A stretch of 64,000 bases of DNA, taken from positions 310,001-374,000 of the forward strand of contig NZ_QFXK01000039.1 in NCBI RefSeq assembly GCF_003261635.1. The letters are read 5' to 3'. Both the position numbers and the translations under genes were made by a program. Of this stretch, positions 5,627-24,908 are shown piece by piece (the first letter of the stretch is position 1; every line of letters starts with the position of its first letter). Source of the stretch: Kribbella monticola (GTDB lineage Bacteria; Actinomycetota; Actinomycetes; Propionibacteriales; Kribbellaceae). A model generated the notes under the pieces. The model had not been told where the DNA came from, did not search any database, and saw only the letters and a list, made by a program, of their open reading frames with translations.

Positions 5627-6994
5627 TCAGAGGAACAGCTTGTCCGGGTTGAGGAGGCCGGCGGGGTCGAAGACCGACTTGAGTTGGCGTTGCAGGCGCA
5701 GGCCGACCGGGCCGAGTTCCTGGGCCAGCCACTGGGACTTGAGTTTGCCGATGCCGTGTTCGCCGGTGATCGTGCCGCCCAACGACAACCCGAGCTGCAT
5801 CACCGCACCGAAAGCCTCCAGAGCGCGAGCCTCGGCCGCGGGATCGTCGCGATCGAAGACGACGGTGGGATGCATGTTTCCGTCACCTACATGCCCAGGG
5901 CAATAAATCTGTACGCCGTACTTCGCGCCGATCTCCCCGACGCCGTTGAGCAGCGCGACCAGCTTGCTGCGCGGTACGGCGATGTCGTCCACCAGCGTCA
6001 CGCCACGCAACTCCAGTGCGGGGTTCACCAGCCGACGTGCCTCCAGCAACAGACGCGACTCCTCCGCATCGGAGGCCTCGGCGACCTCGACAGCCCCGAA
6101 AGCCGTGCAAATACGGGCGATCTCGGCAACATCGGCAGCCGCTCGCGGACCACGGTCGGACTGCGCGATCAGCAGTGACCCGACGTCAGCAGGCAAGCCC
6201 ATGTCCCGATAGTCCTGGATCGCCCGAGCCGTCAGCCCGTCCAGGAACTCCAGCAACGAAGGTCGCAAACCAGACGCCATCACCGCGGCCGCCGCAGCTA
6301 TCCCGTCCTCGATCGACAAGAACGTGGCAGCCGCCGTCAACGCAGCCTCGGGGGCGGGACGCAACGCCAGAGTCGCCTCGGTGACCACGCCCAGGGTCCC
6401 CTCGGAGCCGACGATCAGCCGGGTCACGTCGTACCCAGCCACACCTTTCACCGATCGCCGCCCGGTGCGGATCACCTCGCCAGAGGCGAGAACCACCTCG
6501 AGCGCCCGCACGAAGTCGCCCGTCACGCCGTACTTCACGCAGCACAACCCACCCGCGTTCGTGGCGATGTTTCCGCCGATCGTGGACATCTCCCACGACG
6601 ACGGATCCGGCGGATAGAACAGCCCCTTCTCGAGCACGGCGGCAGACAACACAGAGTTCACCACTCCGGGCTGAACCACGGCGACCTGATCCTCGACCGA
6701 GATCTCCAGGATCCGATCGAGCCGCGAGGTCGACAGCAACACACACCCGTCCAGCGCATTCGCCGCCCCCGACAACCCGGTCCGGGCGCCCTGCGTCACC
6801 ACCGGTACGCCGTACTCCGTGCACGCCCGCAGCACCTCCTGCACCTCGGCGGTGGACGAAGGCCGGACGAGCACGAGCGGCACACCCGCAGTACAGAACG
6901 AGGCATGATCGTTGCGATGGCTGTCCAGTACGTCGGGGTCGGTGACGACCGCCTTCTCTCCGAGAGAGGAGGTCAGCCTCGCGATCAGGCTCAT
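5627..6994 (-). CDS. FAD-binding oxidase, GlcD/D-lactate dehydrogenase family
   Basis: A 455-aa flavoprotein of the glycolate oxidase subunit GlcD / D-2-hydroxyacid dehydrogenase type. The N-terminal PCMH FAD-binding domain has PVVTQGARTGLSGAA (about 65-79), WEMSTIGGNIATNAGG (about 134-149), KYGVTGDFVRALEVVLASGE and IVGSEGTLGVVTEATL. The C-terminal FAD_oxidase_C domain carries PGHVGDGNMHPT and TGEHGIGKLK with the metal/substrate histidines. It probably oxidises a 2-hydroxy acid to the 2-keto acid. It is the last gene of the sugar-acid operon, its start overlapping the upstream stop by ATGA. The acceptor and exact substrate are unknown. Confidence 0.9.
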   Translation of the reverse strand: MSLIARLTSSLGEKAVVTDPDVLDSHRNDHASFCTAGVPLVLVRPSSTAEVQEVLRACTEYGVPVVTQGARTGLSGAANALDGCVLLSTSRLDRILEISVEDQVAVVQPGVVNSVLSAAVLEKGLFYPPDPSSWEMSTIGGNIATNAGGLCCVKYGVTGDFVRALEVVLASGEVIRTGRRSVKGVAGYDVTRLIVGSEGTLGVVTEATLALRPAPEAALTAAATFLSIEDGIAAAAAVMASGLRPSLLEFLDGLTARAIQDYRDMGLPADVGSLLIAQSDRGPRAAADVAEIARICTAFGAVEVAEASDAEESRLLLEARRLVNPALELRGVTLVDDIAVPRSKLVALLNGVGEIGAKYGVQIYCPGHVGDGNMHPTVVFDRDDPAAEARALEAFGAVMQLGLSLGGTITGEHGIGKLKSQWLAQELGPVGLRLQRQLKSVFDPAGLLNPDKLFL

Positions 6995-7866
6995 TCCTCC
7001 TCCTGTTCCGCGAGCAATCGAAGGACCAACTCGGCCCGGCGGACGCGCTCCCGCCCGAGCGCCTCGGCGGTCGCGGCCAGGTGTGCGCCGGCCGGATAGA
7101 TGTTCGGCGCGTTCCGCAGCCCCATCTTCAGATAGACCGGCGCCGCCACCCGCACCACGTCCGGTACGTCGTAGAACCGCACGTGCCCGCCTTGATCATC
7201 AGGAACCTCGATATACATGTCGATCGGCACGGTCGTCATCGCCCGGATCTCCGCCAGCACGCTGATCGGCAGATCGGTCGAGACGTTGAGACTGGTCGCT
7301 CCGAGCCGCTCGTACAGCGCGGCGGTCGATGCGTTTGGCAACGGCATCAGCACCGACGTCTTCAGCACGAGGTCGGCCGGTAGCTCGCCTTCCTTCTTCA
7401 GCAGACCGAGCAGTTCCAGTACGCCGAGGTCGCCGACGAGCAGACTCCGCACCCCGAGCTCGACGGCCCGATACGCATCACACAGCGACGCGGCAACCAT
7501 GTCGTTGCCGCGAGCAACACCGCCGACGGCGGCCGAGACCTTGGCCTGGCCGCCGATGTCCCAGGCGCCGCGCGGACCCAGGAACAGGCAGACCTCCACG
7601 TCGTGGTCGGCACCGAGCGTGAGCATCTCGTCGATCTCGCTGTCGGTCAGCATCATCACGCCGCTGCCCTGCGAGACCCGGTGCACGGTGACGCCACGTG
7701 CGCCCGCCTCGTCCAGCACGGTCCGCATCACCCCCGGACCTTCACAGCTCGGTATCTCCACCTTGTACTGCGTACCGTCGCCGAAGCGCCCCGTCGAGGA
7801 GAACTCGGGCGCCGGCGTGATCAGTCCCCGATCCGCCAGCAGGGCACGGGCCTCGCGCAGGTTCAT
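6991..7866 (-). CDS. TIM-barrel protein, U32-peptidase-like (tentative)
   Basis: A 291-aa protein starting MNLREARALLADRGLITP. It has alternating strand/helix character: 'YKVEIPSCEGPGVMRTVLDEA', 'VHRVSQGSGVMMLTDSEI', 'DVEVCLFLGPRG', 'GVRSLLVGDLGVLELL', 'VLKTSVLMPLPNASTAALYERLGATSLNVS', 'PIDMYIEVPDDQGGHVRFYDV'. This recalls the barrel of U32-family proteins, but I cannot name a catalytic set. ATG 7866 is chosen because it overlaps the upstream stop (ATGA). Its place in a sugar-acid operon suggests an aldolase, epimerase or decarboxylation-like step, not proteolysis. Confidence 0.55.
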   Translation of the reverse strand: MNLREARALLADRGLITPAPEFSSTGRFGDGTQYKVEIPSCEGPGVMRTVLDEAGARGVTVHRVSQGSGVMMLTDSEIDEMLTLGADHDVEVCLFLGPRGAWDIGGQAKVSAAVGGVARGNDMVAASLCDAYRAVELGVRSLLVGDLGVLELLGLLKKEGELPADLVLKTSVLMPLPNASTAALYERLGATSLNVSTDLPISVLAEIRAMTTVPIDMYIEVPDDQGGHVRFYDVPDVVRVAAPVYLKMGLRNAPNIYPAGAHLAATAEALGRERVRRAELVLRLLAEQEEE

Positions 7867-9178
7867 CCCAGCTCCTGCCAGCCGGTGAGGCAGCCGGACG
7901 GATCGGTCAGATTCCGGGCGGTGCCGGCGATCTCCAGGTCGAACCGCTCCGCCACCTCGGTCAGCAGCGCCGGCGTGACCATCAACTCGTTCGGCGACAA
8001 GGTGTCGCGGATCCGGGCCAACCGCACCGAAGACCAGTCCCGCCGTCCGCTCATCGTGACGGCTGCCACCACCGCGGCCGCATCGTCCTCCAGCACCATC
8101 GGCAACCGCGACCGGCGCGCGCCACCGGCGCCGGACGTCAACGCGTTCACATAACTCGTCCGCAGATCGATCTGCTCCAGCAGCCGCGCGGGAATCACAT
8201 CCGCCAGGCCGAGCCCGGACGCGTTCCCGTGCGATGCCTCCGACAACGAGTGCACACTGACCGCCGCGATCGACGGCGACTCGAACTCGGGGATCCCGTG
8301 CACCCAGCACCGCCCGAGCACGTTCGTATCCATCCCGGTGCCCGACTTGTCCTTGCCCATCTCGTCCACCACGAGCACATCCAGCTCGTCGAACGGCAAC
8401 CGGCCCATCAAAGCCCCGGCCCGCTGCAACAAAGCAGTCTCCGCAGCGCCACCGATGCCCTCGGCAACCACCAGCTCCACCGCGGCCGTCCGCTCCAGTG
8501 TGTTCTCCAGAATCGCCAGCCCACCCAAGACCTTGCCCTGGGCAATCACCATCCGAGCCGCGGCCTCGATCGCACCACCCAGAGAGGGAATCCCGCCGGC
8601 GTGCAGAGCGGCCGCACCGGCGTGATTACCCAGCCCGATCGCGAGGATCTTCGCCAGCCCACTCTCCACCGGACCGTGGAAGTCGGTATGCGGCTTCACC
8701 CGGTTGACCAGCAGAACGCCGTCCGCCTTCGCCGCCAGCGCGTCGTGATGGATCGGCGTCCCGTCGTCCAAGGTGCCGACGACAACGGTCTCCATGGTCG
8801 CCTCGATCGGGCATCCCACCGACTCGGGCGTGACGCCGAGACCCGCCAGCATCTCCCGCTGCCCCTCGGCCGTCGCCCCACCGTGCGAACCCATCGCCGG
8901 TACGACGAACGGCTCAGCGCCGGCATCCCGGAGCCAGTCGACCGCTGCCCGAACCACGACGACCAGGTCATGGATGCCCCGACTCCCAGCGGTGACAGCG
9001 ATCCGCGCACCGGGTCGCACCGCCGGAGCCAACGGCGCCAAGGCCGCCTGCGCAGCGGCGTACGGGTCCTGCTCGGTCGGGACGTCCGGGAGCAGTCGCC
9101 TGATCGGCGTGACCTGCGGGATCACGCCGTCAGGGCGGAGTCCCCGGATCGCCTCGAACGGACCCCAGGAGGTGGACA

Positions 9179-9179
<1 letters not shown>
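7863..9179 (-). CDS. LarA-like protein (DUF2088 N-terminal domain)
   Basis: 438 aa. The N-terminal part matches the lactate-racemase LarA N domain/DUF2088 family: 'VRPGARIAVTAGSRGIHDLVVVVRAAVDWLRDAGAEPFVVPAMGSHGGATAEGQ', then 'GTPIHHDALAAKADGVLLVNRVKPHTDFHGPVESGLAKILAIGLGNHAGA'. The His-rich H-H-D, KPHTDF and GNHAGA blocks are where LarA binds substrate and cofactor. The remainder differs from true LarA, and no larB/C/E nickel-pincer genes are adjacent, so a hydroxyacid racemase or epimerase is only inferred. The start at 9179 overlaps the IlvD/Edd stop (TGATG); an upstream in-frame start inside the previous gene is unlikely. Confidence 0.7.
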
Positions 9180-11133
<1,954 letters not shown>

Positions 11134-11137
<4 letters not shown>

Positions 11138-12588
11138 CGAGACACCTCTCCTGTCGTCACGGTTCCGTTCACCCGGCGGCTGATCCCGGCCGGGTTCGCG
11201 TCACGCAGTACTGCGGGAAGCACCAGGTCGGGCGTGTCCTGGTAGGCCACGGGACGCTGGAAACGGCGCGCCGCCGTCACGCCGACGCTGGTGTGGATCG
11301 AGCCGACCGTCGACGGGAACGGACCACCATGGTGTTGCGCCCAACTGACGGCAACCCCGGTCGGCCACCCGTTCCAGAGCACCCGACCGGCCCTTGCCGT
11401 GAGCAACGGAAGTAGCTCGCGGGCCAGCTCGGCATCGGCAGCCTCTTCCGCGTGCAGGGTTGCGGTCAGGTTGCCCTCGAACGCCTCCACGGCCGCACGG
11501 AGTTCGTCCACCGACGAGTACTCGACCACGATCGACACCGGGCCGAAGCACTCTTCGAGGATCTCGTCACGCCGGGCCAGCAGTTCGGTCACCGTTGTCC
11601 CGAGCAACGTCGCGCCGCCGTCGCTCAGCACCCGCACGCCCTCGACCTTGCGCAGCCGGTCGAGACCGGACGAGAAGCCCTCCGCGATCCGGTCGTTCAG
11701 CATCTTCGCCTCGGCGACCGAACTCGTTGCCTCGATCAACTGGTCGTCGAGGCCGTGGCCGGCCGGCAGGAAGAGCAGGCCGGGCTTGGTGCAGAACTGG
11801 CCGACACCGAGCGTGAAGGATCCGACGTACCCGCCGGCAATCTCGTTGCCTCGGGCATCTACAGCCGCCTGGGTGACGAAGACGGGGTTGAGGCTGCCGA
11901 GTTCGCCGTAGAAGGGGATCGGCTCTGGCCTGGTCACCGCGATCTCGTGCAACGCCTTGCCGGCCGGGACGGATCCGGTGAAACCGGCGGCCGTGATCCG
12001 GGGATCCTTGAGCGCGGTGACACCCACGTCGTACCCCTGGATCAGGCCGAGGGTGCCGTCCGGAGCACCTGCGGCACGGAGCGCTTCGATCATGACCTCG
12101 GCAGTCCGGACGGACAGGTCAGGGTGGCCGGGGTGGGCCTTGACGATCACCGGGCATCCGGCCGCCAGCGCCGAGGCCGTGTCGCCTCCGCAGACACTGA
12201 AGGCGAAGGGGAAGTTGCTCGCGGCAAACACCAGCACCGGGCCGAGCGGAACGAGAACGCGGCGCAGGTCCGGCCGGGGTACCGGCTTTGCCTGCGGGTC
12301 CGCGGTGTCGATGACGACCTCGAGCAGCGAGCCCTCTTCCAGAACGTCGGCGAACATCCGGAGCTGACCACTGCTGCGGGCGACTTCGCCGCGCAACCTC
12401 GGCTCGGGCAGCGACGACTCGCGCATCGCGATCGGGACCAGCTCGTCGGCGGCGGCGTCCAGCGCGTCGGCGACGGCTCGGATCCACCCGGCCCGCGCGG
12501 CCGGTTCCGAGGCGGCCAGCGGCCTCGCGGCGTCGGCGGCGTCGGTCAGGGCCTGCTCGAGTTCGGCAGGGGTGGTGTCCGGGGTCAT
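11134..12588 (-). CDS. aldehyde dehydrogenase, 2,5-dioxovalerate (alpha-ketoglutarate semialdehyde) dehydrogenase type
   Basis: 484 aa NAD(P)-dependent aldehyde dehydrogenase. Visible: VFAASNFPFAFSVCGGDTASALAAGCPVIVKAHPGHP (about 140-176, cofactor binding with lysine), AGFTGS, the general-base Glu in FYGELGSLNPVFV (about 228-240) and the catalytic Cys in GVGQFCTKPGL. The motif set is that of ketoglutarate semialdehyde dehydrogenases used in Weimberg-type oxidative pentose or sugar-acid pathways ending in 2-oxoglutarate. It lies between the FAH-family enzyme and the IlvD/Edd dehydratase with ATGA overlaps on both sides, so all are co-translated. Confidence 0.9.
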
Positions 12589-13475
12589 CGGGTCTCCTCC
12601 AAAGTCTCGGCTGCCAGGAAGGCGAAAGGTTCCCGGCCGACTGCCACCGTATTCGTCAACGTGCCGATCTCGCTGATCGCGATCTCCACCACGTCGCCCT
12701 GCTGGAGCGCGAAGTCGAGTTCAGGCACGATTCCGGTGCCGGTCGCGAGGATCACGCCGTCGGGGAACTCGTTCGGTACGAACAGCACGTCGATCAGGTC
12801 CTGCAACTCGCGGACCAGGTTCTTGGTGGACGTCGTCCCGGTGAACACCTCGGCGTCGCCGCGTCGGATCACCAGGTCGATGGTGAGGTCCTTCGGGTCG
12901 GCGACCTCCCAGACCGGCCGGATCCCGGCCGCCAGCGCACAGCCGCCGGCGAACACCTTCGCCTGCGGGATGTACAGCGGGTTCTCACCTTCGATCGACC
13001 GCGAGCTGACGTCGTTGCAGACGGTGAACCCGACGATCTCACCGCGACTGTTGGCGACGATCGCGAGTTCGGGCTCCGGTACGTCGTGACCCGAGTCCGC
13101 CCGGATTCCGATCGGGTCGCCGTCCGTGACGACCCGCCACGCGGGTGCCTTGGGGAACAACTCCGGCCGCGGTGCGGAGTACACCCGGTCGTACACGGAC
13201 TGCTCGGTGCTCTCTTCCATCCGGGCACCGCGAGATCGCTCGTACGTGACGCCCGCACACCACACCTCGCCGTACCCGTCGAGCGGCGGCAGCAGCCGTA
13301 CGCCGGCCAGCGGGACCTCGTCGCCGAGCTTCGCCACGGCGGCGCGGAGCTCCTCGACTCCCAGCCGGAGGAGCTCCGCCATCCCCGTGACACCGCGAAC
13401 CGGTGCGACCGTGTCACCGGTTCGGACCCCGGCCTGGGGCGGTTGGCCTGGGAGCTGGAAACGGACCAGATGCAT
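12585..13475 (-). CDS. fumarylacetoacetate hydrolase (FAH) family enzyme
   Basis: 296 aa. The C-terminal FAH domain shows GIRADSGHDVPEPELAIVANSRGEIVGFTVCNDVSSRSIEGENPLYIPQAKVF with metal-binding E-x-E and D, then TSTKNLVRELQDLIDVLFV and GVILATGTGIVPELDFALQQGDVVEIAISEIGTLTN. In sugar-acid operons this family acts as 2-keto-3-deoxy-acid dehydratase or 2,4-diketo acid hydrolase, giving the semialdehyde oxidised by the next enzyme. The start MHLVRFQLPG (ATG 13475) is chosen by family N termini; a longer frame exists to 13565 but would encroach on an unlikely leader. It lies 31 nt after the UxaA-like gene. Confidence 0.88.
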   Translation of the reverse strand: MHLVRFQLPGQPPQAGVRTGDTVAPVRGVTGMAELLRLGVEELRAAVAKLGDEVPLAGVRLLPPLDGYGEVWCAGVTYERSRGARMEESTEQSVYDRVYSAPRPELFPKAPAWRVVTDGDPIGIRADSGHDVPEPELAIVANSRGEIVGFTVCNDVSSRSIEGENPLYIPQAKVFAGGCALAAGIRPVWEVADPKDLTIDLVIRRGDAEVFTGTTSTKNLVRELQDLIDVLFVPNEFPDGVILATGTGIVPELDFALQQGDVVEIAISEIGTLTNTVAVGREPFAFLAAETLEETR

Positions 13476-13506
13476 CAGGTTCTGCCTCTCACGATTCGGG
13501 ACACGG

Positions 13507-16281
13507 TTACATCGAGGTACCGAGCAGGCCACGGGTGATCTGGAAGCCGACGTTGCCTGAAGCAACCGCTTTGGGAATTTGCCGGCGGCTCGCCACCGCG
13601 GCGATCACGTCCAGGCCGGCTCGGGCTTGTTCAGCGGCGTCCCCGAGGGCGACGGCATCCAGATCCTCGCCGTACTTCGCGACCGTCGGCGGATCACTGC
13701 TGATCTCGACGACGGGCACGAACCGCTGCGCCGACAAGGTGCCGCCGGCAACATGCGCCAGGATCTGCTGTACTCCGCCGGCGCCGAAGCCGGTCGCCGT
13801 CTCCATCCAGTCGGTGCCCGGCATGCGCATCACGTGCCAGCCCGGCGTGGTGAATCGCTGGCCGTGCGCGATCGTCGGTTGGACCGGGGCCGGCGAGCCG
13901 AAGGCGGCGGATCGGAAGTTGTCGTCGGTGATCAGCGCGCCTCGCGAGGAGAGCACGACCGAGCCGCCGGCACCGACGATCTCGCGGCCGATCAAAGCCA
14001 TCGCCTCGGCGGTCTCCGGGCTGAGGTCGCCGCGAGCTTCGAGGCCGACGGTGAGCTCGCCGATGCTGCCTTCGACCTCTTCGGGCGCCGGGAGATGGAA
14101 GCTGCCGAACCAGTCTTTGACCCTCGTCGTCACCGCGTCGAGGCCGCCGTCCGCCTGGATACTTGCCCAGCCGAACCGGGACGGATCAGCACCGGCCTCG
14201 ACCAGCCGGGAACGGAAGTAGTCGTTGTGGGTCTTCTCGCAGCCGTGTTCGAGGAGCAGTGCCATCCGGACGTTCGGGTGGAGGAGGTAGCCGAGCATCG
14301 TCCGCGCGAAGGTCTCCTCGGAGGCACCACCGCTCGAACCACACCCCTCGGTGTGCGGCAACGCAACCATCCTGGTGACCGCATCCCCGGCCCAGCGTTC
14401 GGTTTCCGCCGTTTCCGCAAGTCTGAGCGCTATCTGCCCCGAGCAGAGACTGGTCGGCAGAATCAACCCGACCTGCTCGGGCACACGCTTTCCGTCCGCC
14501 TCCAACAGCGTCACGCGCATGGTTTCTGTTGCCTGCGGGGCGGAAAACGTCAGCGGTTTTGCCGGGAGGGGGGCGTCGCGGTCTTCGGCCGGGAGGTCGG
14601 CGAGCTTGCGCGACGTACGGCCGTCCGTGGTGATCGAGATACCTTCGCGGGGGCCGCTCTGCCGCCAGTTGCGCCAGATCGACACCTGGCTGTGGCCGGC
14701 CCGCTCCCCCGCACTCGGCTCACCCGACGCCACCCGCACGGTCAGGTCGAACGTCTCCGCGGTCAGCTCGTCCATCGGCGTACCGGTCAGGTAGCGGCCG
14801 GCGTCCACGTCCATCTCGGCGTGCAGCAACTCGTACCGCGTCGAGGTGGTGACGAACTTGATCGTCGGCACGAACGGAAAGTTGGTGATCGAGCCGTTTC
14901 CGGTGGTGAAGAAGATCAGGTTGCAACCACTGGCGACCTGCCCGGCGACGGACTCCAGGTCGTTGCCCGGACTGTCCATGAAGACGAACCCATGGCCGGG
15001 CATCGGTTCGGCGTAGTCGATGACGTGGTCGAGCCGCACGTCGCGATCGAGCTTGCGGGCGGCGCCGACGGACTTGAGCACGATGTTGTACAGCCCGCGG
15101 TACACGTTGCCGCCGGACGGATTCCCCTCGGCGGTGTGACCGTGCCAACCGACGCGTTCCTTGAACGACTGCACGGTTTTCAGGAACCGGCGAGCGGTCG
15201 GAAGATCCCGCACGTTCTTGAGTACATAGCCTTCCGCACCGATCAGTTCGTCGGTCTCAGCCAGTACTGCGACGCCGCCGTGCCGGATCACCTCGCGCGC
15301 GACGGCGCCGGACAGCGGGTTCGCGCTCACACCGGAGAAAGCGTCCGATCCGCCGCACTGCAAGCCGATCCAGAGATCCGCGAGCGGGACCTCTTCGCGT
15401 TGCTGGGCCGCCACGATCGGCAACCATGGCCGCACGAGCTCGGCCGCTTCTGCGAGGTCGTGCTCGAAACCTCCTTGCCGGGTGAAGTACGCGTGGGGCA
15501 CCCGGATCGGCGGATAGCCCTGCTCAACCATGAAGTCGCGAATCGCCTGCCCGGAGACGAGGTCGTCCTCGGTATCGACGATGAGGACGGCACCGACATT
15601 CGGGTTCAGCGCAAACCCGGCGAGGGTCGCCAGCAGGAGGTGCAGATTGTTCGGCGTACCTTCCTCGCCGCCTTCGGTATGCGCCACCGGCACGACGCCG
15701 TCGAACCCCTCCGCCCCGTCGAACCCTGCGGCGCCGTCGAACGCCGCGGCGCCGTCAGCCCCCTTCGCTCCGGCGAACCGCTTGGCGAGTTCGGTGACGA
15801 AGCCGCTGCTGCGGGAGCTGGTGGCGAGCAGTACTACGTGGTTGCGGGTGCCGGCCGGACCTTGTGCACGGGGATAGCCGAGGAACGTGCCCGGCTGCTC
15901 GACCGAAGTGACCTGCTGGCCGAGGTTGAGGGCGTTCTCGTCCAGCTCGTACGGATCCAGTGGTTCGTTGTCGGCCGACGGCTCACTCGGCAACCCCTCG
16001 ACACCTCGAGCCGACACGGCGGCCAGGCTGGTCGGCGTACAGACGTAGTCGCCGATCGACAGGTCGCGGCGGGCGCGGGCGAACGGGGTGTGCCAGGACA
16101 GCAGGGCCTCGCCGGCCGCGATCGGGCGGGCGACGATCCGGTGACCTTCGAGGACCGTGTGCGGCAGCGTCACCGCCGTACCGGCGAAGTCAATGACGGC
16201 ACCTTGCTCCAGCCGGCGAGAGCAGATCGCGACGTTGTCGCCCGGCTCGGGCAGCACACCGATCTCGTCGAATCTCACCAT
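13507..16281 (-). CDS. double-length UxaA-family altronate/galactarate dehydratase-like enzyme
   Basis: 924 aa, nearly twice normal UxaA. Residues about 1-90 are the SAF domain (VRFDEIGVLPEPGDNVAICSRRL). About 125-530 is a complete GD_AH_C module (YPRAQGPAGTRNHVVLLATS, VAHTEGGEEG, LQCGGSDAFSGVSANP, HTAEGNPSGGNVYRGL, FFTTGNGSITNFPFVPTIK, GRYLTGTPMDEL). After about 570 a second, partial module repeats the motif order (GLILPTSLCSGQIALRL, LPHTEGCGSSGG, LLHPNVRMALLLEHGCEKTHND). This suggests internal duplication. ATG 16281 is chosen for GGGAGG 8 nt upstream; an ATG at 16323 lies inside the GntR palindrome. It is the first gene of the operon, and an 18-bp tandem repeat lies inside it. Confidence 0.85.
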   Translation of the reverse strand: MVRFDEIGVLPEPGDNVAICSRRLEQGAVIDFAGTAVTLPHTVLEGHRIVARPIAAGEALLSWHTPFARARRDLSIGDYVCTPTSLAAVSARGVEGLPSEPSADNEPLDPYELDENALNLGQQVTSVEQPGTFLGYPRAQGPAGTRNHVVLLATSSRSSGFVTELAKRFAGAKGADGAAAFDGAAGFDGAEGFDGVVPVAHTEGGEEGTPNNLHLLLATLAGFALNPNVGAVLIVDTEDDLVSGQAIRDFMVEQGYPPIRVPHAYFTRQGGFEHDLAEAAELVRPWLPIVAAQQREEVPLADLWIGLQCGGSDAFSGVSANPLSGAVAREVIRHGGVAVLAETDELIGAEGYVLKNVRDLPTARRFLKTVQSFKERVGWHGHTAEGNPSGGNVYRGLYNIVLKSVGAARKLDRDVRLDHVIDYAEPMPGHGFVFMDSPGNDLESVAGQVASGCNLIFFTTGNGSITNFPFVPTIKFVTTSTRYELLHAEMDVDAGRYLTGTPMDELTAETFDLTVRVASGEPSAGERAGHSQVSIWRNWRQSGPREGISITTDGRTSRKLADLPAEDRDAPLPAKPLTFSAPQATETMRVTLLEADGKRVPEQVGLILPTSLCSGQIALRLAETAETERWAGDAVTRMVALPHTEGCGSSGGASEETFARTMLGYLLHPNVRMALLLEHGCEKTHNDYFRSRLVEAGADPSRFGWASIQADGGLDAVTTRVKDWFGSFHLPAPEEVEGSIGELTVGLEARGDLSPETAEAMALIGREIVGAGGSVVLSSRGALITDDNFRSAAFGSPAPVQPTIAHGQRFTTPGWHVMRMPGTDWMETATGFGAGGVQQILAHVAGGTLSAQRFVPVVEISSDPPTVAKYGEDLDAVALGDAAEQARAGLDVIAAVASRRQIPKAVASGNVGFQITRGLLGTSM
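15698..15769 (-). repeat. 18-bp tandem repeat inside the UxaA-like gene
   Basis: Four consecutive 18-bp units beginning CCGTCGAAC (15698, 15716, 15734) and a degenerate CCGTCAGCC (15752). They encode repeated AxFDGA-type hexapeptides between the two sides of the first GD_AH_C core, probably a flexible loop. Copy number may vary between strains. Confidence 0.75.
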
Positions 16282-19079: not shown

Positions 19080-19871
19080 TCAGGAACTGAAGAGAGGATC
19101 CAGCGCGGCGAGCAGCTCATCGGCCGTCACCCGCCCCTCCCCCTCGAACTCGCCGACCTCGACTCCGACGATCTCGTGCTGCGCGGCGGCTTCGGCACAG
19201 GCGTGGAGATCTTCCAGGGACAGGCCGGCAGGCACCTGGTAGTCGGTCTGGACCAGGCCGGGCTCGAGGACGTCGCAGTCGAGGTGGAAGTAGACCGGCC
19301 GGCCGGCAAGAACGGCGGCCAGCCGATCGCCGAGATCAGGCCCGGCCTCGATCAGCTCGATCCGCCCCGAGCGGATGTGCTCCGCCTCGGCCGGGTCGAG
19401 ATCACGGGCACCCACCAGCACCGCGTGCCCGACACCGGCACCAAGACCTGAATCCCACCAGCCGAGCGGCCCCGACAGCGCCATCCCGCCGAGGAACCCG
19501 GTGGTGGTGTCAGCAGGAACGTTGATGTCGCCGTGCGCATCGAGCCAGACGACGACCGCATCCGGTCGATGCCGGGCGACGACCGGTTGAGTCGCAAGGG
19601 CCACTGCGCACCGGGTGATGGCCGACACCGGTACCAGCCCGTCGGTCATCACCGCGTCGATCCGGGCAGCCAGCTCGCCCAGTGGTCCACGGGCTCGCTC
19701 GAGCTCGAGCTCCCACGACTGTGGATCACTGGGCACCGGCGTACCGATCACTGTCGGCTCGACGCCTAGTCGTCTCGCCATCGCCTCGCCGACGACCCGG
19801 GCCGCCGCCATGGCCCGGTCGTTGTGGTCACCAGCCGGACCGATGTACGTCGTAAGCCCTGTCGAAGTCAT
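19080..19871 (-). CDS. arginase/agmatinase-fold protein, possibly lacking one metal ligand
   Basis: 263 aa ureohydrolase-fold protein. Two of the three manganese blocks are clear: VVWLDAHGDIN (D-A-H-x-D) and YFHLDCDVLEPGLV. The usual upstream GGDHS block is not evident; the corresponding segment reads GLVPVSAITRCAVAL. The protein may therefore hydrolyse a different guanidino or amide substrate, or bind one metal only. ATG 19871 is chosen by convention; GTG 19877 is two codons earlier. It begins 9 nt after the oxidoreductase gene, hence the same transcript. True arginases are about 300 aa. Confidence 0.7.
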   Translation of the reverse strand: MTSTGLTTYIGPAGDHNDRAMAAARVVGEAMARRLGVEPTVIGTPVPSDPQSWELELERARGPLGELAARIDAVMTDGLVPVSAITRCAVALATQPVVARHRPDAVVVWLDAHGDINVPADTTTGFLGGMALSGPLGWWDSGLGAGVGHAVLVGARDLDPAEAEHIRSGRIELIEAGPDLGDRLAAVLAGRPVYFHLDCDVLEPGLVQTDYQVPAGLSLEDLHACAEAAAQHEIVGVEVGEFEGEGRVTADELLAALDPLFSS

Positions 19872-19880
19872 GCGCACAGG

Positions 19881-21077
19881 TTAGGAGGGGGCGTCGCCGT
19901 GGTCGGGGATCTCCAGCTGTACGCCGCCTTGCAGGGCGGACTGGTGGGCGACGATCCCGGGGAGCGTGTAGCGGGCCGCGACCCAGGCGTTGACCGGCGG
20001 CAGGGTCTTGTCGGCGATCGCGCGGACGAAGTCGTCGGCGAGGAAGTGGTGCGAACCCTCGTGGCCGTTGTGCATTCCTTCGTACTCCGCAGGCAGGCGG
20101 CTGCGGTCGTGCACGGGCGACAGGCCCGAGCGGAAGGCGTCGCGCAGGGCCGGGTCGACATTCGCGAGGTCGGCGTCGTCCAGCGAGCTGCTGGGCTTCG
20201 TCTCCATCAGCGCGCTGATGTCCTCGACGCCCTCCTTGGTCTGCCACACGGTGGTCGTGGCGAGCTGCTCGAAGCTGCCCTCGGTGCCGAAGACGCGCAA
20301 CCGGGACTCACGCAGGTGCGACGGGTAGCCGACGCGGCGCATCTCGTTGGTCCGCATGATGCCGCCGTCGGCGAGTTTGAACAGCGCGGTCGCGTTGCTG
20401 AAGTCGTTGTCGAACTGGCTGATCTCCTTGTCGAACACGCCGTCGCCGCGGTCGTCCTTCACACCGATACAGGACACGTGCGTGGCGTGCTGCCCGGTGA
20501 CGGACAGAACGTTGCCGACGGCATGCGTCGGGTACAGCATGGGCGGGAACGACGCGGTCTTCTTCCAGTCCTCGCCGCCGGAGTACTGGTAGGCGGCGTA
20601 GAAGCCGAGATCCATGTCGTGGACGTAGTCGCCCTCGCAGTAGAAGACCCGGCCGAACTCGCCCTTGGCGAGCTTGTCGCGGCAGTACACCGAGGACGGG
20701 TAGTAGTAGCTCGTCTCGCCCATCATGTAGGTCAGGCCGGTCTCCTTGACCAGCTCGATGATGCGGGCGATCTGGTCGGCCTCGATCGCCATCGGCACGG
20801 TCGAGTACACGTGCTTGCCGGCTTCCAGCGCGCGGATCGCCATCTCGCCGTGGAACCAGCGCTGGGTGAAGATCGCGACCGCGTCGACGTCCGACTCGAG
20901 CATCTCCTCGAACGACTGGTAGGTGACCGCGATGCCTTGCTGGGCTGCCATCTCGGCGGTCCGATCCGGCAGCACGTCGGTCAGCCTGACCGACGAGACG
21001 TCCGGGTGAGCGGTCCACAACCGCAGGAACGAAGGGGCGAACTGGCCGGCGCCGACCACACCGATGCTGAGACTCAT
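19881..21077 (-). CDS. Gfo/Idh/MocA-family oxidoreductase
   Basis: 398 aa. The N-terminal Rossmann fold starts SIGVVGAGQFAPSFLRLW; the C-terminal alpha/beta domain carries YPTHAVGNVLSVTG, where the family usually has the DxxxH-type catalytic site. The classic EKP tripeptide after GKHV is replaced by YSTVPMA, so the usual lysine is missing. It likely oxidises or reduces a sugar or cyclitol with NAD(P). ATG 21077 is preceded by an AT-rich 63-nt gap, which may hold its own promoter. It is next to the ABC transporter/GDPD operon and an inositol-phosphatase-like gene, in keeping with polyol metabolism. Confidence 0.85.
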   Translation of the reverse strand: MSLSIGVVGAGQFAPSFLRLWTAHPDVSSVRLTDVLPDRTAEMAAQQGIAVTYQSFEEMLESDVDAVAIFTQRWFHGEMAIRALEAGKHVYSTVPMAIEADQIARIIELVKETGLTYMMGETSYYYPSSVYCRDKLAKGEFGRVFYCEGDYVHDMDLGFYAAYQYSGGEDWKKTASFPPMLYPTHAVGNVLSVTGQHATHVSCIGVKDDRGDGVFDKEISQFDNDFSNATALFKLADGGIMRTNEMRRVGYPSHLRESRLRVFGTEGSFEQLATTTVWQTKEGVEDISALMETKPSSSLDDADLANVDPALRDAFRSGLSPVHDRSRLPAEYEGMHNGHEGSHHFLADDFVRAIADKTLPPVNAWVAARYTLPGIVAHQSALQGGVQLEIPDHGDAPS

Positions 21078-21140
21078 ACCGCAAGGCAATCACACATTTG
21101 TCGTCTATGTAAGAACAGTTTTGCACATCAAGACGGAGGG

Positions 21141-21824
21141 CTAGGTGTGGGTGGGAGCCAACAGACGGTCGGGATGGTCTGTGGTTATTCCGTCCACGCC
21201 CAAGGCGATGGCGCGAGTGAGCGTGTCGGGGTCGGGGACGGGCCAGGCGGTGACGGTCAGGCCGTGGGCGTGCAGGGTGGCTACGCCTTCGGGGGTGAGG
21301 CCCTTGATGCCGCAGAGGGCGGTGGTGGCCTGGGCGTCCTGGCAGAGGGTGATGACGTCGGGGATGGGTGGAGTGCGGCCGAGGATGAGGCCCGTGTCGG
21401 CGGTGGGGCGCAGACGGCGTACGGCGAGTAGGACCTCCGACTGCGACGAGGTGATCAGGGTGCGGGCGGCCAGGTCCGGGTCGGCTTCGAGCGACTCGAC
21501 CAGGAGAGGAACCGCGGCAGCCGCCTTGATCTCCGCCTGGAAACGGATCGGTACCGCGGCGACCGTCTCGGCCCAAGTGGGAATCACCTCGCCGAGGCCC
21601 GCATCCAGTGCACGCAGCTGAGCAAGGGTGAGCTCCTCGACCGCGCCGGTGCCGTCGGTCGTGCGGTTGACGGTGGCGTCGTGGATCACCACCAGTTCGC
21701 CGTCCGCGCTGACCCGCAGGTCGAGCTCGACCTCGTCGCAGCCGTCGGCGGCCGCGCGACGGAAGGATCGCAGCGTGTTCTCCGGTTCGGTTCCGAGCGC
21801 GCCGCGATGGCCGGTGATGATCAA
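21141..21824 (-). CDS. glycerophosphodiester phosphodiesterase
   Basis: 227 aa GDPD TIM barrel that hydrolyses glycerophosphodiesters to sn-glycerol-3-phosphate and an alcohol. The start LIITGHRGALGTEPENTLRSF contains the HRG and PENT catalytic motif; EVELDLRVSADGELVVIHDATVNRTTDGTG supplies the E-x-D metal ligands and HD. A TTG start at 21824 overlaps the transporter binding-protein stop (TTGA), with GAGAAGG as ribosome binding site; no better start exists. The position after a UgpB-like protein parallels ugpQ in Ugp operons. It is cytosolic because no signal peptide is seen. Confidence 0.92.
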   Translation of the reverse strand: MIITGHRGALGTEPENTLRSFRRAAADGCDEVELDLRVSADGELVVIHDATVNRTTDGTGAVEELTLAQLRALDAGLGEVIPTWAETVAAVPIRFQAEIKAAAAVPLLVESLEADPDLAARTLITSSQSEVLLAVRRLRPTADTGLILGRTPPIPDVITLCQDAQATTALCGIKGLTPEGVATLHAHGLTVTAWPVPDPDTLTRAIALGVDGITTDHPDRLLAPTHT

Positions 21825-23137
21825 AGCACCTTCTCCTCGTACTGGCGCCGGACCTCGTCGCCGATCGCCTCGAGCCGCCGCGCGACCGCGCCGAACACCT
21901 TGCGCGGCGACGCGTTGTCGGCGTAGATCTGCTGCAACCCCGTGTAGATGGCCACATTGGAGTTCCGCCCGAAGAGCCGGATCGCGTCCTGCTTGCGGGC
22001 GTTCGTCAGTTGCGCGATCGCGACCCCGTAGTTGGGTTCGTCCGCGATCAGCTTCTTCAGCGCCGGATCCTCGCGCGCCTTGTCGACCACCGGCAGATAC
22101 CCGGTCTGGGTCGTCCACCAGGCCGAGTTCTCCGGCCGCGCGAGGAAGGCGAGGAACGCGGCCGCCGCCTGCTTGCGTTCAGCAGAAGCGTTCCGCAGCA
22201 TCCCGATTCCACCGCCACCAGTGGCGATCCCGGCCGCCACCTCCGACGGCACGAACCCGGCGCCGACCTTGAACTTCGCCTTGCTCATCGCGCTTTTCAG
22301 TCCACCGGTCGAGTCCTGCACCATCGCGACCAGCCCGTTCGCGAAGTCCGTCATCGCGCTGTTCGCCATGTAGGCGAAGCCGTCGTCGTGCACCATCCGC
22401 CGCTGCCACTCCCCGGCCGCGACCGCACCGTCCTGATCGATCGTCACGTCGAGCCCGTTCGAGTACGCCCCGCCGAACTGCCACACATTCCCCTGGAACT
22501 GCCAGTCGCCGTCGACCTTCGCCAACGCAAGACTCCGCAACGACCGCCCACCGGACTGAACGCGAGCCAGCGACGGCCCCCAGGACCGCAACTCGCTCCA
22601 GGTCCGTGGCGCCCGATCCGGCAGCCCGGCTTTGGCGAAAGCATCCCGGTTGAAGTACAGAATCGGCGTCGACCGCGCGAACGGCACACACCAACTCTGC
22701 CCCTTCACCACATACTCACCGAACAGCTTCTGCTGATAGACAGCCGGCCCGAAACCGTCGGTGAAGTACCCGTTCAACGGCTCCAGCGCGTCGTTCAAGT
22801 AGAACCGCTCCCAGGTGACATCCGACAGTACTGCGATGTCGGGCGCCTGCCGCGCGATCAACGAGGCAGCCACCTTCTGAGCGACGTCGTCATAACTGCC
22901 CTGGAACTGCGCCTCGACATACACGTCCTGCTGCGACTCGTTGAACTTGGCAACGAGCTTGTCGACTGCCTTCCCGTTCGCCCCGCCGTACGACGACCAG
23001 AAGACGACCCTGGTCCGCCCGGCGTACTGCTTCGGTACTGCGCCCGCCGGCTGCTCGTACTCCGCATCGACCGACCGGTACCCACACCCGGCCAGGGACC
23101 CAGCGGCGGCCAACCCCAAGAACGCGCGACGCCTCAT
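21821..23137 (-). CDS. ABC transporter substrate-binding lipoprotein, UgpB-like
   Basis: 438 aa family-1 solute-binding protein. The N terminus MRRRAFLGLAAAGSLAGCG is a lipoprotein signal with Cys about residue 18. The mature part has 'VVFWSSYGGANGKAVDKLVAKFNESQQDVYVEAQFQGSYDDVAQKVAASLIARQAPDIAVLSD', close to glycerol-3-phosphate binding proteins, and TWSEL and TGGGGIGML blocks. Neighbouring permeases and a GDPD gene support glycerol-3-phosphate or glycerophosphodiester uptake. The ATG overlaps the permease stop (ATGA). No ATPase gene is in the operon, so a shared MsiK-type ATPase is probable. Confidence 0.9.
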   Translation of the reverse strand: MRRRAFLGLAAAGSLAGCGYRSVDAEYEQPAGAVPKQYAGRTRVVFWSSYGGANGKAVDKLVAKFNESQQDVYVEAQFQGSYDDVAQKVAASLIARQAPDIAVLSDVTWERFYLNDALEPLNGYFTDGFGPAVYQQKLFGEYVVKGQSWCVPFARSTPILYFNRDAFAKAGLPDRAPRTWSELRSWGPSLARVQSGGRSLRSLALAKVDGDWQFQGNVWQFGGAYSNGLDVTIDQDGAVAAGEWQRRMVHDDGFAYMANSAMTDFANGLVAMVQDSTGGLKSAMSKAKFKVGAGFVPSEVAAGIATGGGGIGMLRNASAERKQAAAAFLAFLARPENSAWWTTQTGYLPVVDKAREDPALKKLIADEPNYGVAIAQLTNARKQDAIRLFGRNSNVAIYTGLQQIYADNASPRKVFGAVARRLEAIGDEVRRQYEEKVL

Positions 23138-23958
23138 CCTTTCAACGCTCCCTGAGTGATGCCCCCGACGATGTAGCGCTGCGCCACCAAGAAGATCAGT
23201 AGCATCGGCGCGAGAACCAGCAACGTGCCGGCCATGATCGTGCCCCAGTTGGCCAACCCCTCCTCGTCTTTGAGGATCAGCAGACCGACCGGCAACGTCC
23301 GCATGTCGGCGGTGTTGGTGACGATCAACGGCCAGACGAAGTTGTTCCACTCCTCCACCGCCGTGATCACGACAACCGTGATCAGCATCGGCTGCGACAT
23401 CGGCAGCACCACTCGCCACAGCGTCCGCAGATGACCCGCTCCGTCGACGGCGGCCGCATCCGTCACCTCCGACGGCAAGGTCAGGAAGTGCTGGCGCATC
23501 AGGAAGGTGGCGAACGCCGACCCGATCCCGGGCACGATCAACCCGGCGTACGTGTTGATCCAGCCGAGCGACGCGACGGTCAGGTAGTTCGGCAGCAACG
23601 TGACGTGTCCCGGCACCATCATTGCCCCGAGCACCAAAGTAAACAGCACCTTCTTGAACGGGAACCTCAAGTAGGCAAAGGCGTACGCGGTCAGTACGGC
23701 GTTGGCCACCTTCGCCGCGGTACCGACGACTGTGATGATCGTGGAGTTCAGGAAGAATCGGTCGAACGGAGCCGCCTTCCAGGCCAGCGAGAAGTTCTCC
23801 CAGGTCAGGTCGTGCGGCCACCAGGCCGGTGGCCACTGGTAGATGTCGGCCGGCTGCTTCAGCGCCGTACTGATCAACCAGTACAGCGGAGCCAGGAAGA
23901 TCGCGGCGACGCCGACCAGTACGACGTACTGCAGCGGCCTCGTGCCCAAGCGGCTCAT
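23134..23958 (-). CDS. ABC transporter permease, UgpE-like
   Basis: 274 aa inner-membrane permease of the carbohydrate/glycerol-3-phosphate type with about six membrane segments. The first is YVVLVGVAAIFLAPLYWLIS. The EAA loop for ATPase contact is at about 180-200 (EVTDAAAVDGAGHLRTLWRVVLPMSQPMLIT). It pairs with the upstream permease; both stop/start junctions are ATGA overlaps, giving translational coupling. Confidence 0.92.
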   Translation of the reverse strand: MSRLGTRPLQYVVLVGVAAIFLAPLYWLISTALKQPADIYQWPPAWWPHDLTWENFSLAWKAAPFDRFFLNSTIITVVGTAAKVANAVLTAYAFAYLRFPFKKVLFTLVLGAMMVPGHVTLLPNYLTVASLGWINTYAGLIVPGIGSAFATFLMRQHFLTLPSEVTDAAAVDGAGHLRTLWRVVLPMSQPMLITVVVITAVEEWNNFVWPLIVTNTADMRTLPVGLLILKDEEGLANWGTIMAGTLLVLAPMLLIFLVAQRYIVGGITQGALKG

Positions 23959-24908
23959 TTGTAGTGCACCCGCCTCTCCATCACCCGGGCCTGGACGGCG
24001 GTGACGATCAGCAGGATGACGAACATGATGATCGACAGGGTCGCCGCGCGGCCGGCGTTGAACGCCTGGAAGCCTTCGTTGTAGATCGACCAGCTCAACG
24101 TGGTGGTGGCATCACCAGGGCCACCACCGGTCATCACCGCGATCACGTCGAAGGCCTGGAACGTGCCGATCACCGTGGTGATCAGCAGGAAGAACGTGAT
24201 CGGCGCGAGCAGCGGCAACTTGATCCGCCGGAACCTGGTCCAGGTTCCCGCACCGTCGATCGCGGCCGCCTCGTCGAGTTCCTTCGGCAACCCCTGCAGG
24301 CCGGCCAGGTAGATCAGGGCCGTGAAGCCGACGTTCTTCCACAGGTACACGATCACCAGGCCGGGCAGTGCCCAGTCGGAGTTGTTCATCCAGTCCGGCG
24401 GTTCCGCGCCGAACGGCTCGATCAGCGCGCGCAGCAGTCCGTAGCCGGGATCGAAGATGAACAGCCAGATGGTCGCAACGGCGGCGCCGGAAAGGATGTG
24501 CGGCGCGAACGAGATCGTCCGCACGACACCGCGCCCCTTGAGCGGCTGGTTGAACAGCAACGCCAGCGCCAGCCCGATCACCAGGCTGCCGGCCACGATC
24601 AGCCCGGTGAAGACGAGCGTGATCCACAACGTCTTGTGGAAGGCGGGATCGGTGAGGATGTTGGCGTAGTTGGTCAACCCGACGAAGGTCGGGCGGGCCG
24701 CGATCATGTTCCAGTCGGTCAGGCTGAGAAACGCGTTGTAGAGGATCGGCCAGTACGCGAACACGGCGATCACCAGCAGGTTCGGTGCCACCAGCAAAGC
24801 GAACAGCCGGTACTCGCGGCGGCGGCGCCGACGCTGCTCCTGGTTGCCGCTGGCAACTTGTCGCCGTTCGTCCGGATGCGTCCGGACCGGTAGGTCGAGA
24901 GCGGTCAC
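23955..24908 (-). CDS. ABC transporter permease, UgpA-like
   Basis: 317 aa. A basic cytosolic N terminus (EQRRRRRREYR) precedes the first membrane segment LFALLVAPNLLVIAVFAYWPILY; the EAA motif is KELDEAAAIDGAGTWTRFRRIKLPLLAPITF. A GTG start at 24908 is chosen because GAGGAGG lies 5-11 nt upstream; a longer frame to 25016 lies inside the IMPase gene. It forms the heterodimeric importer with the next gene. Confidence 0.9.
   Translation of the reverse strand: MTALDLPVRTHPDERRQVASGNQEQRRRRRREYRLFALLVAPNLLVIAVFAYWPILYNAFLSLTDWNMIAARPTFVGLTNYANILTDPAFHKTLWITLVFTGLIVAGSLVIGLALALLFNQPLKGRGVVRTISFAPHILSGAAVATIWLFIFDPGYGLLRALIEPFGAEPPDWMNNSDWALPGLVIVYLWKNVGFTALIYLAGLQGLPKELDEAAAIDGAGTWTRFRRIKLPLLAPITFFLLITTVIGTFQAFDVIAVMTGGGPGDATTTLSWSIYNEGFQAFNAGRAATLSIIMFVILLIVTAVQARVMERRVHYK

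What the first reader, a model, noticed from the sequence alone, without database searches (positions are those of the whole stretch)
5627..16281. Seven-gene translationally coupled sugar-acid pathway with two unassigned steps
UxaA-like, FAH, semialdehyde dehydrogenase, IlvD/Edd, LarA-like, U32-like and GlcD-like genes are joined by 1-4 bp overlaps except for one 31-nt gap. Known chemistry explains dehydration, cleavage or hydrolysis and oxidation to 2-oxoglutarate or pyruvate-level products. The LarA-like and U32-like proteins have no obvious place, so an epimerase entry step or a new sugar acid is possible. Two distinct dehydratase families in one operon imply two substrates or two epimers.
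Basis: partly seen in the sequence, partly recalled or inferred. Interest (0 to 1): 0.5.

Follow-up and report, generated by a model that had tools for sequence, protein, structure and literature searches.

The report
Sugar-acid operon with an unassigned enzyme
A tightly packed set of seven bacterial genes probably breaks down five-carbon sugar acids to 2-oxoglutarate; one of its proteins looks like a nickel-dependent epimerase of unknown substrate, and another may be an unrecognised kind of dehydratase.

Summary
Seven minus-strand genes (5627-16281) overlap by 1-4 bp except for one 31-nt gap. All seven are in order in 18 of 18 larger Kribbella-type loci read; the LarA-like gene is in 38 of 38 genomes of the genus.

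[quoted passage not shown] The LarA-like protein passes NCBIfam 'nickel pincer cofactor-dependent isomerase, group 22', the genome has LarB, LarC and LarE, and several relatives sit beside acid-sugar genes. A C2-epimerase is likely; its substrate is unknown.

The U32-like protein is a conserved TIM barrel. In five genomes of one family it fills the only empty step of a dehydrogenase, lactonase, dehydratase, aldehyde-dehydrogenase operon, and no FAH relative and only one DHDPS-type protein was found in each. I propose a third type of 2-keto-3-deoxypentonate dehydratase (about 0.4); an aldolase is the main rival, and many of its other contexts remain unexplained.

New details: the UxaA protein is a tandem whose four family cysteines are split 1+3 between halves, and a conserved palindrome lies in the divergent promoter.

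The parts
13507..16281 (-). Tandem UxaA-family protein (924 aa), probable sugar-acid dehydratase; C309 in half 1, C613/C647/C681 in half 2
   Evidence: Pfam PF20629/PF04295; cysteine pattern
12585..13475 (-). FAH-fold protein, probable 2-keto-3-deoxypentonate dehydratase (D form)
   Evidence: 2q18 at 181 bits
11134..12588 (-). NADP-type aldehyde dehydrogenase, probable 2-oxoglutarate semialdehyde dehydrogenase
   Evidence: Pfam PF00171; contexts of relatives; no equivalog
9179..11137 (-). IlvD/Edd protein of the pentonate dehydratase kind
   Evidence: NF009559 863.5 vs 882; 8ej0, 5j83, 9evv
7863..9179 (-). LarA homologue, nickel-pincer isomerase group 22, probable C2-epimerase
   Evidence: NF052515 469.9 vs 400; alignment
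6991..7866 (-). U32-like TIM-barrel protein, proposed 2-keto-3-deoxypentonate dehydratase or aldolase
   Evidence: Pfam 22.9 vs 22.4; model pLDDT 89; contexts
5627..6994 (-). GlcD-like FAD oxidase, substrate unknown
   Evidence: TIGR00387 423 bits vs 567.9; PF02913/PF01565
16329..17138 (+). GntR/FCD regulator, divergent (likely start 16410)
   Evidence: PF07729, PF00392
16319..16329 (.). Palindrome TGCATGATGCA, probable operator

Best explanation
The operon is a locally regulated, translationally coupled pathway that turns five-carbon sugar acids (pentonates) into 2-oxoglutarate. The group-22 LarA protein inverts C2 of a sugar acid with a nickel-pincer cofactor and so feeds a stereoisomer that the dehydratases accept. 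Two dehydratases of different families (tandem UxaA and IlvD) remove water to give 2-keto-3-deoxypentonates, perhaps of opposite C4 configuration. Two second-step dehydratases of different fold (FAH for the D form; the U32-like TIM barrel, by inference, for the L form) give 2-oxoglutarate semialdehyde, which the aldehyde dehydrogenase oxidises. GlcD oxidises a 2-hydroxy acid by-product or alternative substrate. Shown here: gene content, coupling, conservation, family matches, presence of the cofactor genes, conserved palindrome. Inferred: all substrates, the stereochemical split, and the U32-like step (about 0.4 by itself).
For: Seven genes in order in 18 of 18 loci; LarA22 in 38 of 38 genomes of the genus. 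[quoted passage not shown] IlvD is near L-arabinonate dehydratase. A UxaA-family D-arabinonate dehydratase is known (PMC6336799). LarA22 passes NF052515; LarC is in 43 of 46 LarA22 genomes against 205 of 350 others, and this genome has LarB, LarC and LarE. LarA22 relatives adjoin a DUF1537 kinase and PdxA, with a tandem UxaA about 8 kb away in Rubrobacter, or UxaA and LarC. U32-like: in 5 of 5 f20 genomes read the operon is U32L, MR/MLE, Zn-alcohol dehydrogenase, ALDH, SMP-30-like lactonase (Pfam for one of the five); these genomes gave no FAH relative at E<=1e-10 and one DHDPS-family protein each. U32L also lies near arabinofuranosidase-type genes and directly before IlvD in some loci.
Against: U32L also occurs where this role has no obvious use: beside a homoserine kinase cluster in 19 of 54 loci clustered; in 7 of 8 Nonomuraea loci with no other match to my reference set; in Geodermatophilaceae with CoA-transferase, MaoC, DHDPS and GlcD genes. 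Three Streptomyces genomes with U32L have 5-6 DHDPS-family proteins, the best at 183-190 bits, so the step is not clearly empty there; L051 has a DHDPS gene near U32L. Two MAG loci have a Route III-like hydrolase, below cut-off. The Kribbella operon already has FAH, so U32L is not strictly needed. ALDH has no equivalog. LarA22 found no solved LarA by profile, matched a LarA of the same genome only weakly, and its AlphaFold model failed; 3 of 46 LarA22 genomes gave no LarC. The U32L fold resembles many barrels. GlcD has no assigned step. The operon has no aldose dehydrogenase or lactonase.
Confidence: 0.45

Rival explanations
1. Same pentonate pathway, but U32L is a 2-keto-3-deoxypentonate aldolase (Dahms type): it makes pyruvate and glycolaldehyde, the aldehyde dehydrogenase makes glycolate and GlcD makes glyoxylate.
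For: It gives GlcD a job. GlcD is within reach of U32L in 6 of 68 named non-Kribbella loci, among them four Geodermatophilaceae with GlcD 64% identical in the one compared. The f20 operon fits this too. Several class II aldolases are among the fold matches.
Against: ALDH relatives stand in pathways that end in 2-oxoglutarate semialdehyde, by context. FAH of the dehydratase kind is in the same operon. Fold matches do not discriminate.
Confidence: 0.2
2. The operon degrades a six-carbon or other acid sugar (for example an altronate-like hexonate or an aldarate), and the enzymes named after pentonates act on longer substrates.
For: UxaA-family enzymes are mostly hexonate or aldarate dehydratases (PMC6336799). 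Pantoea's tandem UxaA lies by a 2-keto-3-deoxygluconate permease. Some LarA relatives epimerise gluconate/mannonate (PMC7583248).
Against: FAH is nearest a pentonate-route enzyme, IlvD near L-arabinonate dehydratase, and no kinase or known 2-keto-3-deoxyhexonate aldolase is in the operon.
Confidence: 0.2
3. LarA22 or U32L are accessory (repair, regulation or a neighbouring pathway) and not steps of the main route.
For: U32L has many unrelated contexts. LarA22 lacks a close solved relative.
Against: Both are embedded and translationally coupled in 18 of 18 loci.
Confidence: 0.15

Closest known systems
Weimberg (Route II) pathway: Caulobacter xylXABCD, Sulfolobus D-arabinose route, Azospirillum L-arabinose route
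   Same: Pentonate dehydratase, 2-keto-3-deoxypentonate dehydratase of the FAH fold, aldehyde dehydrogenase, adjacent regulator
   Different: No aldose dehydrogenase or lactonase; adds a second first-step dehydratase, a LarA group 22 protein, a U32-like protein and GlcD
LarA superfamily, nickel-pincer isomerase group 22 (NCBIfam NF052515)
   Same: Score over cut-off; R67, H99, H164, K177, H193 invariant in 24 relatives
   Different: None of the 13 proteins assayed in PMC7583248 Table 1 is of group 22, and I saw no substrate for it in the papers read; here it is in a Weimberg-type operon
UxaA/GarD family (D-altronate, D-galactarate, D-idonate, D-arabinonate dehydratases)
   Same: Pfam domain pair; four cysteine positions present in the chain
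   Different: Fused tandem of about 900 aa with the cysteines shared out 1+3; among loci read, seen in Kribbella-type loci, Rubrobacter and Pantoea
Peptidase U32 family (MK0906, PDB 5d88)
   Same: TIM-barrel core; Pfam match just over cut-off; fold match Z 15.4, rmsd 2.9 over 186 residues
   Different: No conserved cysteine in 48 relatives; often near sugar-acid genes; CutC and other barrels match equally well

Membership tests
LarA nickel-pincer isomerase, group 22 | NCBIfam NF052515 score over curated cut-off | tested here: met
   469.9 bits vs 400
LarA nickel-pincer isomerase, group 22 | Residues equivalent to LarA R75, H108 and H174 | tested here: met
   R67, H99, H164 invariant in 24 sequences; equivalence from a weak profile alignment to a LarA-family protein of the same genome, E 0.0045, probability 7.7%
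LarA nickel-pincer isomerase, group 22 | Residues equivalent to LarA K184, H200 and D72 | tested here: inconclusive
   K177 and H193 are invariant, but one search does not align them to the expected residues; I match them by position only. No D72 equivalent is seen.
LarA nickel-pincer isomerase, group 22 | Host has LarB, LarC and LarE | tested here: met
   LarC 417.8 bits, LarE 279 vs 150, LarB 263.1 vs 175; two other LarA-family proteins in the genome could also need them
LarA nickel-pincer isomerase, group 22 | Bound cofactor and epimerase activity | not testable with these tools
   Needs purified protein
Weimberg pathway | Pentonate dehydratase of the IlvD clade | tested here: inconclusive
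   863.5 vs cut-off 882; 9evv and 5j83 among best solved relatives
Weimberg pathway | 2-keto-3-deoxypentonate dehydratase | tested here: met
   By homology only: 2q18 at 181 bits; activity not tested
Weimberg pathway | 2-oxoglutarate semialdehyde dehydrogenase | tested here: inconclusive
   No equivalog over cut-off; solved relatives 1eyy and 3v4c only; contexts of relatives support it, one does not
Weimberg pathway | Aldose dehydrogenase and lactonase in the operon | tested here: not met
   Absent from the seven genes
UxaA/GarD family | Both GD_AH domains over Pfam cut-off | tested here: met
   PF20629 295.4 bits, PF04295 138.7 bits
UxaA/GarD family | Four conserved cysteines within one unit | tested here: not met
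   One in half 1, three in half 2; 20 of 20 tandem proteins aligned. Equivalence to the cysteines of PMC6336799 is by motif and spacing.
Peptidase U32 | Pfam PF01136 cut-off | tested here: met
   22.9 vs 22.4 bits, marginal, residues 134-219 only
Peptidase U32 | Conserved cysteines of Fe-S type U32 proteins (recalled) | tested here: not met
   No cysteine among invariant or nearly invariant columns of 48 sequences
Known 2-keto-3-deoxypentonate dehydratases (FAH, DHDPS/NAL) | U32L belongs to either family | tested here: not met
   Only PF01136 matched at E<=0.1; the review section lists only FAH and DHDPS/NAL structures (PMC9795676)

The most novel reading that the evidence does not exclude
The U32-like protein founds a third, unrelated family of 2-keto-3-deoxypentonate dehydratases, acting on the L form in arabinose-type pathways of actinobacteria and others, while LarA group 22 is a nickel-dependent C2-epimerase of tetronates and pentonates. 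Together they let one operon funnel several stereoisomeric pentonates into a single semialdehyde.
Probability: 0.3. Interest if true: 0.7.

Novelty: new variant of a known kind. Interest (0 to 1): 0.52.

Why it matters
It gives testable jobs to two protein groups for which I saw no assigned substrate. A third type of 2-keto-3-deoxypentonate dehydratase would fill a gap in sugar oxidation by actinobacteria (U32L is in 51 of 296 class genomes, the window's own included) and could serve routes from hemicellulose sugars to 2-oxoglutarate. A substrate for LarA group 22 would extend nickel-pincer chemistry. The tandem UxaA looks like a duplicated metalloenzyme that kept one composite metal site.

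Tried and rejected
U32L as a Fe-S U32 protein: no conserved cysteine. LarA-like/U32-like as a recurrent pair: only Kribbella-type loci held both, among those read; in the 396-genome phylum draw no match was marked 'same class' besides the window's own genome. The palindrome as mark of a wider regulon: its 15-base form is exact once in the genome; 8 further places with one mismatch are fewer than the reversed control pattern gives (36), so no linked transporter was found (the short 11-base form was not searched genome-wide). LarA22 against PDB: nothing by sequence or profile at E<=1. Comparison with the LarA-family protein of L001 was weaker than with L002. AlphaFold of LarA22 from 12 close sequences failed, pLDDT 37, and was not searched. 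Fold search of U32L: CutC, U32 MK0906, RuBisCO-type barrels and aldolases at similar scores, so no function was taken from it; families absent from those rows are not excluded. Tandem UxaA plus this FAH as a fixed pair: Pantoea's FAH is another type. In my reference set the label 'Gfo' is in fact a zinc-binding alcohol dehydrogenase of Natronococcus, and one reference from a cut gene was probably out of frame; neither is used as printed. The 20 unnamed loci were picked by me for diversity, and 54 of the 80 named loci were clustered, so those counts are not random samples. Gene calls come from a simple caller of mine; families there are by eye unless a Pfam or NCBIfam call is cited.

Full report
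Observation. Overlaps are 4, 4, 1, 4 and 4 bp, with one 31-nt gap between the UxaA-like and FAH genes. A GntR/FCD regulator is divergent. The window lies in an 8.03-Mb, 90-contig genome. I take it to be a Kribbella: of the 12 named loci with the operon, 11 bear that genus name and one is titled Streptomyces sp. SID13031.

Conservation. LarA22 was found in 38 of 38 genomes of the family, which form one genus. In 30 of 30 short loci held from that search, the window's own among them, IlvD, LarA22, U32L and GlcD lie together. In 18 of 18 larger loci (6 unnamed, 12 named, possibly overlapping in organism) all seven genes are present, one with UxaA cut by the contig end, and the start-stop overlaps are largely kept. 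A palindrome, TGCATNATGCA, lies between regulator and operon. It occurs once in the window, expected 0.00. A 15-base form is exact once in the genome. One copy is in each of 17 of 17 loci scanned, 119-223 bp beyond a GntR landmark in all 17, and 78-91 nt before a UxaA landmark in the 10 of 17 where that landmark was found. This is a probable private operator.

The core route. IlvD scores 863.5 against a cut-off of 882 for L-arabinonate dehydratase; its best solved relatives are 8ej0, 5j83 and, titled L-arabinonate dehydratase, 9evv. [quoted passage not shown] ALDH has no NCBIfam equivalog. Its relatives stand in an Arthrobacter cluster with DHDPS, proline racemase and FAD oxidoreductases, which I read as hydroxyproline degradation, behind an SMP-30 lactonase and a DHDPS gene in Azospirillum, and in the Pseudosulfitobacter araD cluster; a Rhodococcus relative is in a CoA-transferase cluster and says nothing either way, and a Corynebacterium relative lies with enolase-type and FAH genes. 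Together these point to pentonate, 2-keto-3-deoxypentonate, 2-oxoglutarate semialdehyde, 2-oxoglutarate. Family knowledge used is in PMC9795676 (passages and section 11 read) and PMC6336799 (passages and section 8 read); the latter reports a UxaA-family D-arabinonate dehydratase, which makes a pentonate role for the UxaA-like gene possible. Passages only were seen of PMC6475665 and PMC8563752.

Tandem UxaA. The 924-aa protein has two GD_AH units (two stretches each). Of the four cysteines conserved in the family (PMC6336799), matched here by motif and spacing through a single-unit relative, half 1 keeps only the fourth (C309) and half 2 the first three (C613, C647, C681). The pattern holds in 20 of 20 tandem proteins aligned: the window, 17 Kribbella-type loci, Rubrobacter and Pantoea. 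I infer one composite iron site per chain.

LarA group 22. The protein passes NF052515, as does the Pseudosulfitobacter relative. R67, H99, H164, K177 and H193 are invariant in 24 sequences. A weak profile alignment to a LarA-family protein of the same genome pairs the first three with the expected arginine and histidines, but not K177 and H193. The genome has LarB, LarC and LarE. In the 396-genome phylum draw, 46 genomes hold LarA22 at E below 1e-20; three weaker matches (4e-4 to 6e-4) were dropped. LarC is in 43 of the 46 and in 205 of the other 350, Fisher p about 1e-6; I take the two draws, which share handles, to be the same genomes. The genomes are related (28 of the 46 are one family), so the p value overstates the evidence. 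Neighbours elsewhere: DUF1537 kinase and PdxA in Rubrobacter and Natronococcus, the Rubrobacter pair scoring best as D-threonate kinase and D-threonate 4-phosphate dehydrogenase, both below cut-off, with PdxA over its cut-off, and a tandem UxaA about 8 kb away; UxaA, LarC, LarB, a gene I read as LarE, and araD in Pseudosulfitobacter. A Halocatena relative has no such neighbours. Group 22 is not named in the text of PMC7583248 or PMC11770544 (term searches; sections read; further passages). PMC12611868 (introduction, parts 1-2 of results and section 2.6 read) treats another branch. PMC11770544 reports C2-epimerisation of 4-deoxytetronates and D-arabinarate by other LarA proteins.

U32-like protein. 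AlphaFold2 gave pLDDT 89 and eight strands. Invariant polar residues (E37, R63, Q66, R99, K169, N194, E220, D223, K247 among others) lie in or just after these strands, as an active site would. Fold matches are many barrels: CutC first at Z 15.7, U32 MK0906 at Z 15.4 over 186 residues, rmsd 2.9. Context: 14 of 20 unnamed loci chosen for diversity have an IlvD or MR/MLE match. Of 68 named non-Kribbella loci, 20 do if weak MR/MLE hits are counted. Arabinose-type glycosidases are neighbours in several: GH127 in L192 and, by cluster membership only, L203; ArfA over cut-off in L043; GH43 in L044 and L049.

The key case is family f20. Five genomes carry, in one operon, U32L, MR/MLE, Zn-alcohol dehydrogenase, ALDH (480-519 bits to the window's ALDH) and an SMP-30-like lactonase; four of the five have a LacI-like gene upstream (Pfam for one; the rest by eye and by match). 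None of the five gave a FAH relative at E<=1e-10, and each gave one DHDPS-family protein at 53-73 bits, which I take to be DapA. They are draft genomes, 95-99% complete. Since the review lists FAH and DHDPS/NAL enzymes for the second dehydration, U32L is the obvious candidate. Paper searches joining U32 with sugar acid or arabinonate found none.

What does not fit. U32L is beside a homoserine-kinase cluster in 19 of 54 clustered loci and beside an RraA-like cluster in 9 (families confirmed for L177). Seven of eight Nonomuraea loci show no other match to my reference set. Geodermatophilaceae, with the closest U32L outside Kribbella (73-79%), have U32L, DHDPS, in L151 a glycerate kinase, then GlcD, and further off FAH and, in the two followed upstream, ALDH, but also CoA-transferase and MaoC genes. 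Three Streptomyces genomes have 5-6 DHDPS-family proteins. L052 and L053 hold U32L with both IlvD and FAH, L052 with a GntP permease, as in Kribbella. Two MAG loci have a Route III-like hydrolase below cut-off. L051 has DHDPS near U32L. GlcD within reach of U32L in 6 of 68 named loci speaks for the aldolase rival.

Verdict. The operon is real, fixed in its genus as sampled, and most probably a pentonate pathway with an epimerase step. The most interesting open part is U32L. I rate it a new variant of a known kind of pathway.

Noticed in passing
L001 (G000:C73:412464-416036) and L002 (G000:C76:50537-53980): Two further LarA-family proteins in the same genome; the one in L002 matches PDB 4nar at 212 bits and LarA structures weakly. 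The cofactor genes are scattered: LarB/LarC on C75, LarE on C76.
   Followed up: partly
L140: A record titled Streptomyces sp. SID13031 carries the whole operon with U32L 95% identical, so its genus label may be wrong.
   Followed up: no
L177, L205 and other Acidobacteria loci: U32L follows a homoserine kinase gene in 19 of 54 clustered loci and adjoins an RraA-like gene in 9; no explanation.
   Followed up: partly
L042:11029-13286: An APH-type kinase and a protein over the enolase cut-off lie downstream of U32L in an unnamed 1.3-Mb genome.
   Followed up: no
L247 (Pantoea soli plasmid): Tandem UxaA with another FAH type and a 2-keto-3-deoxygluconate permease behind a GntR gene.
   Followed up: partly
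window 19080-24908: Arginase-family, Gfo/Idh/MocA, GDPD and ABC transporter genes beyond the regulator, on the minus strand; no link to the operon was tested.
   Followed up: no
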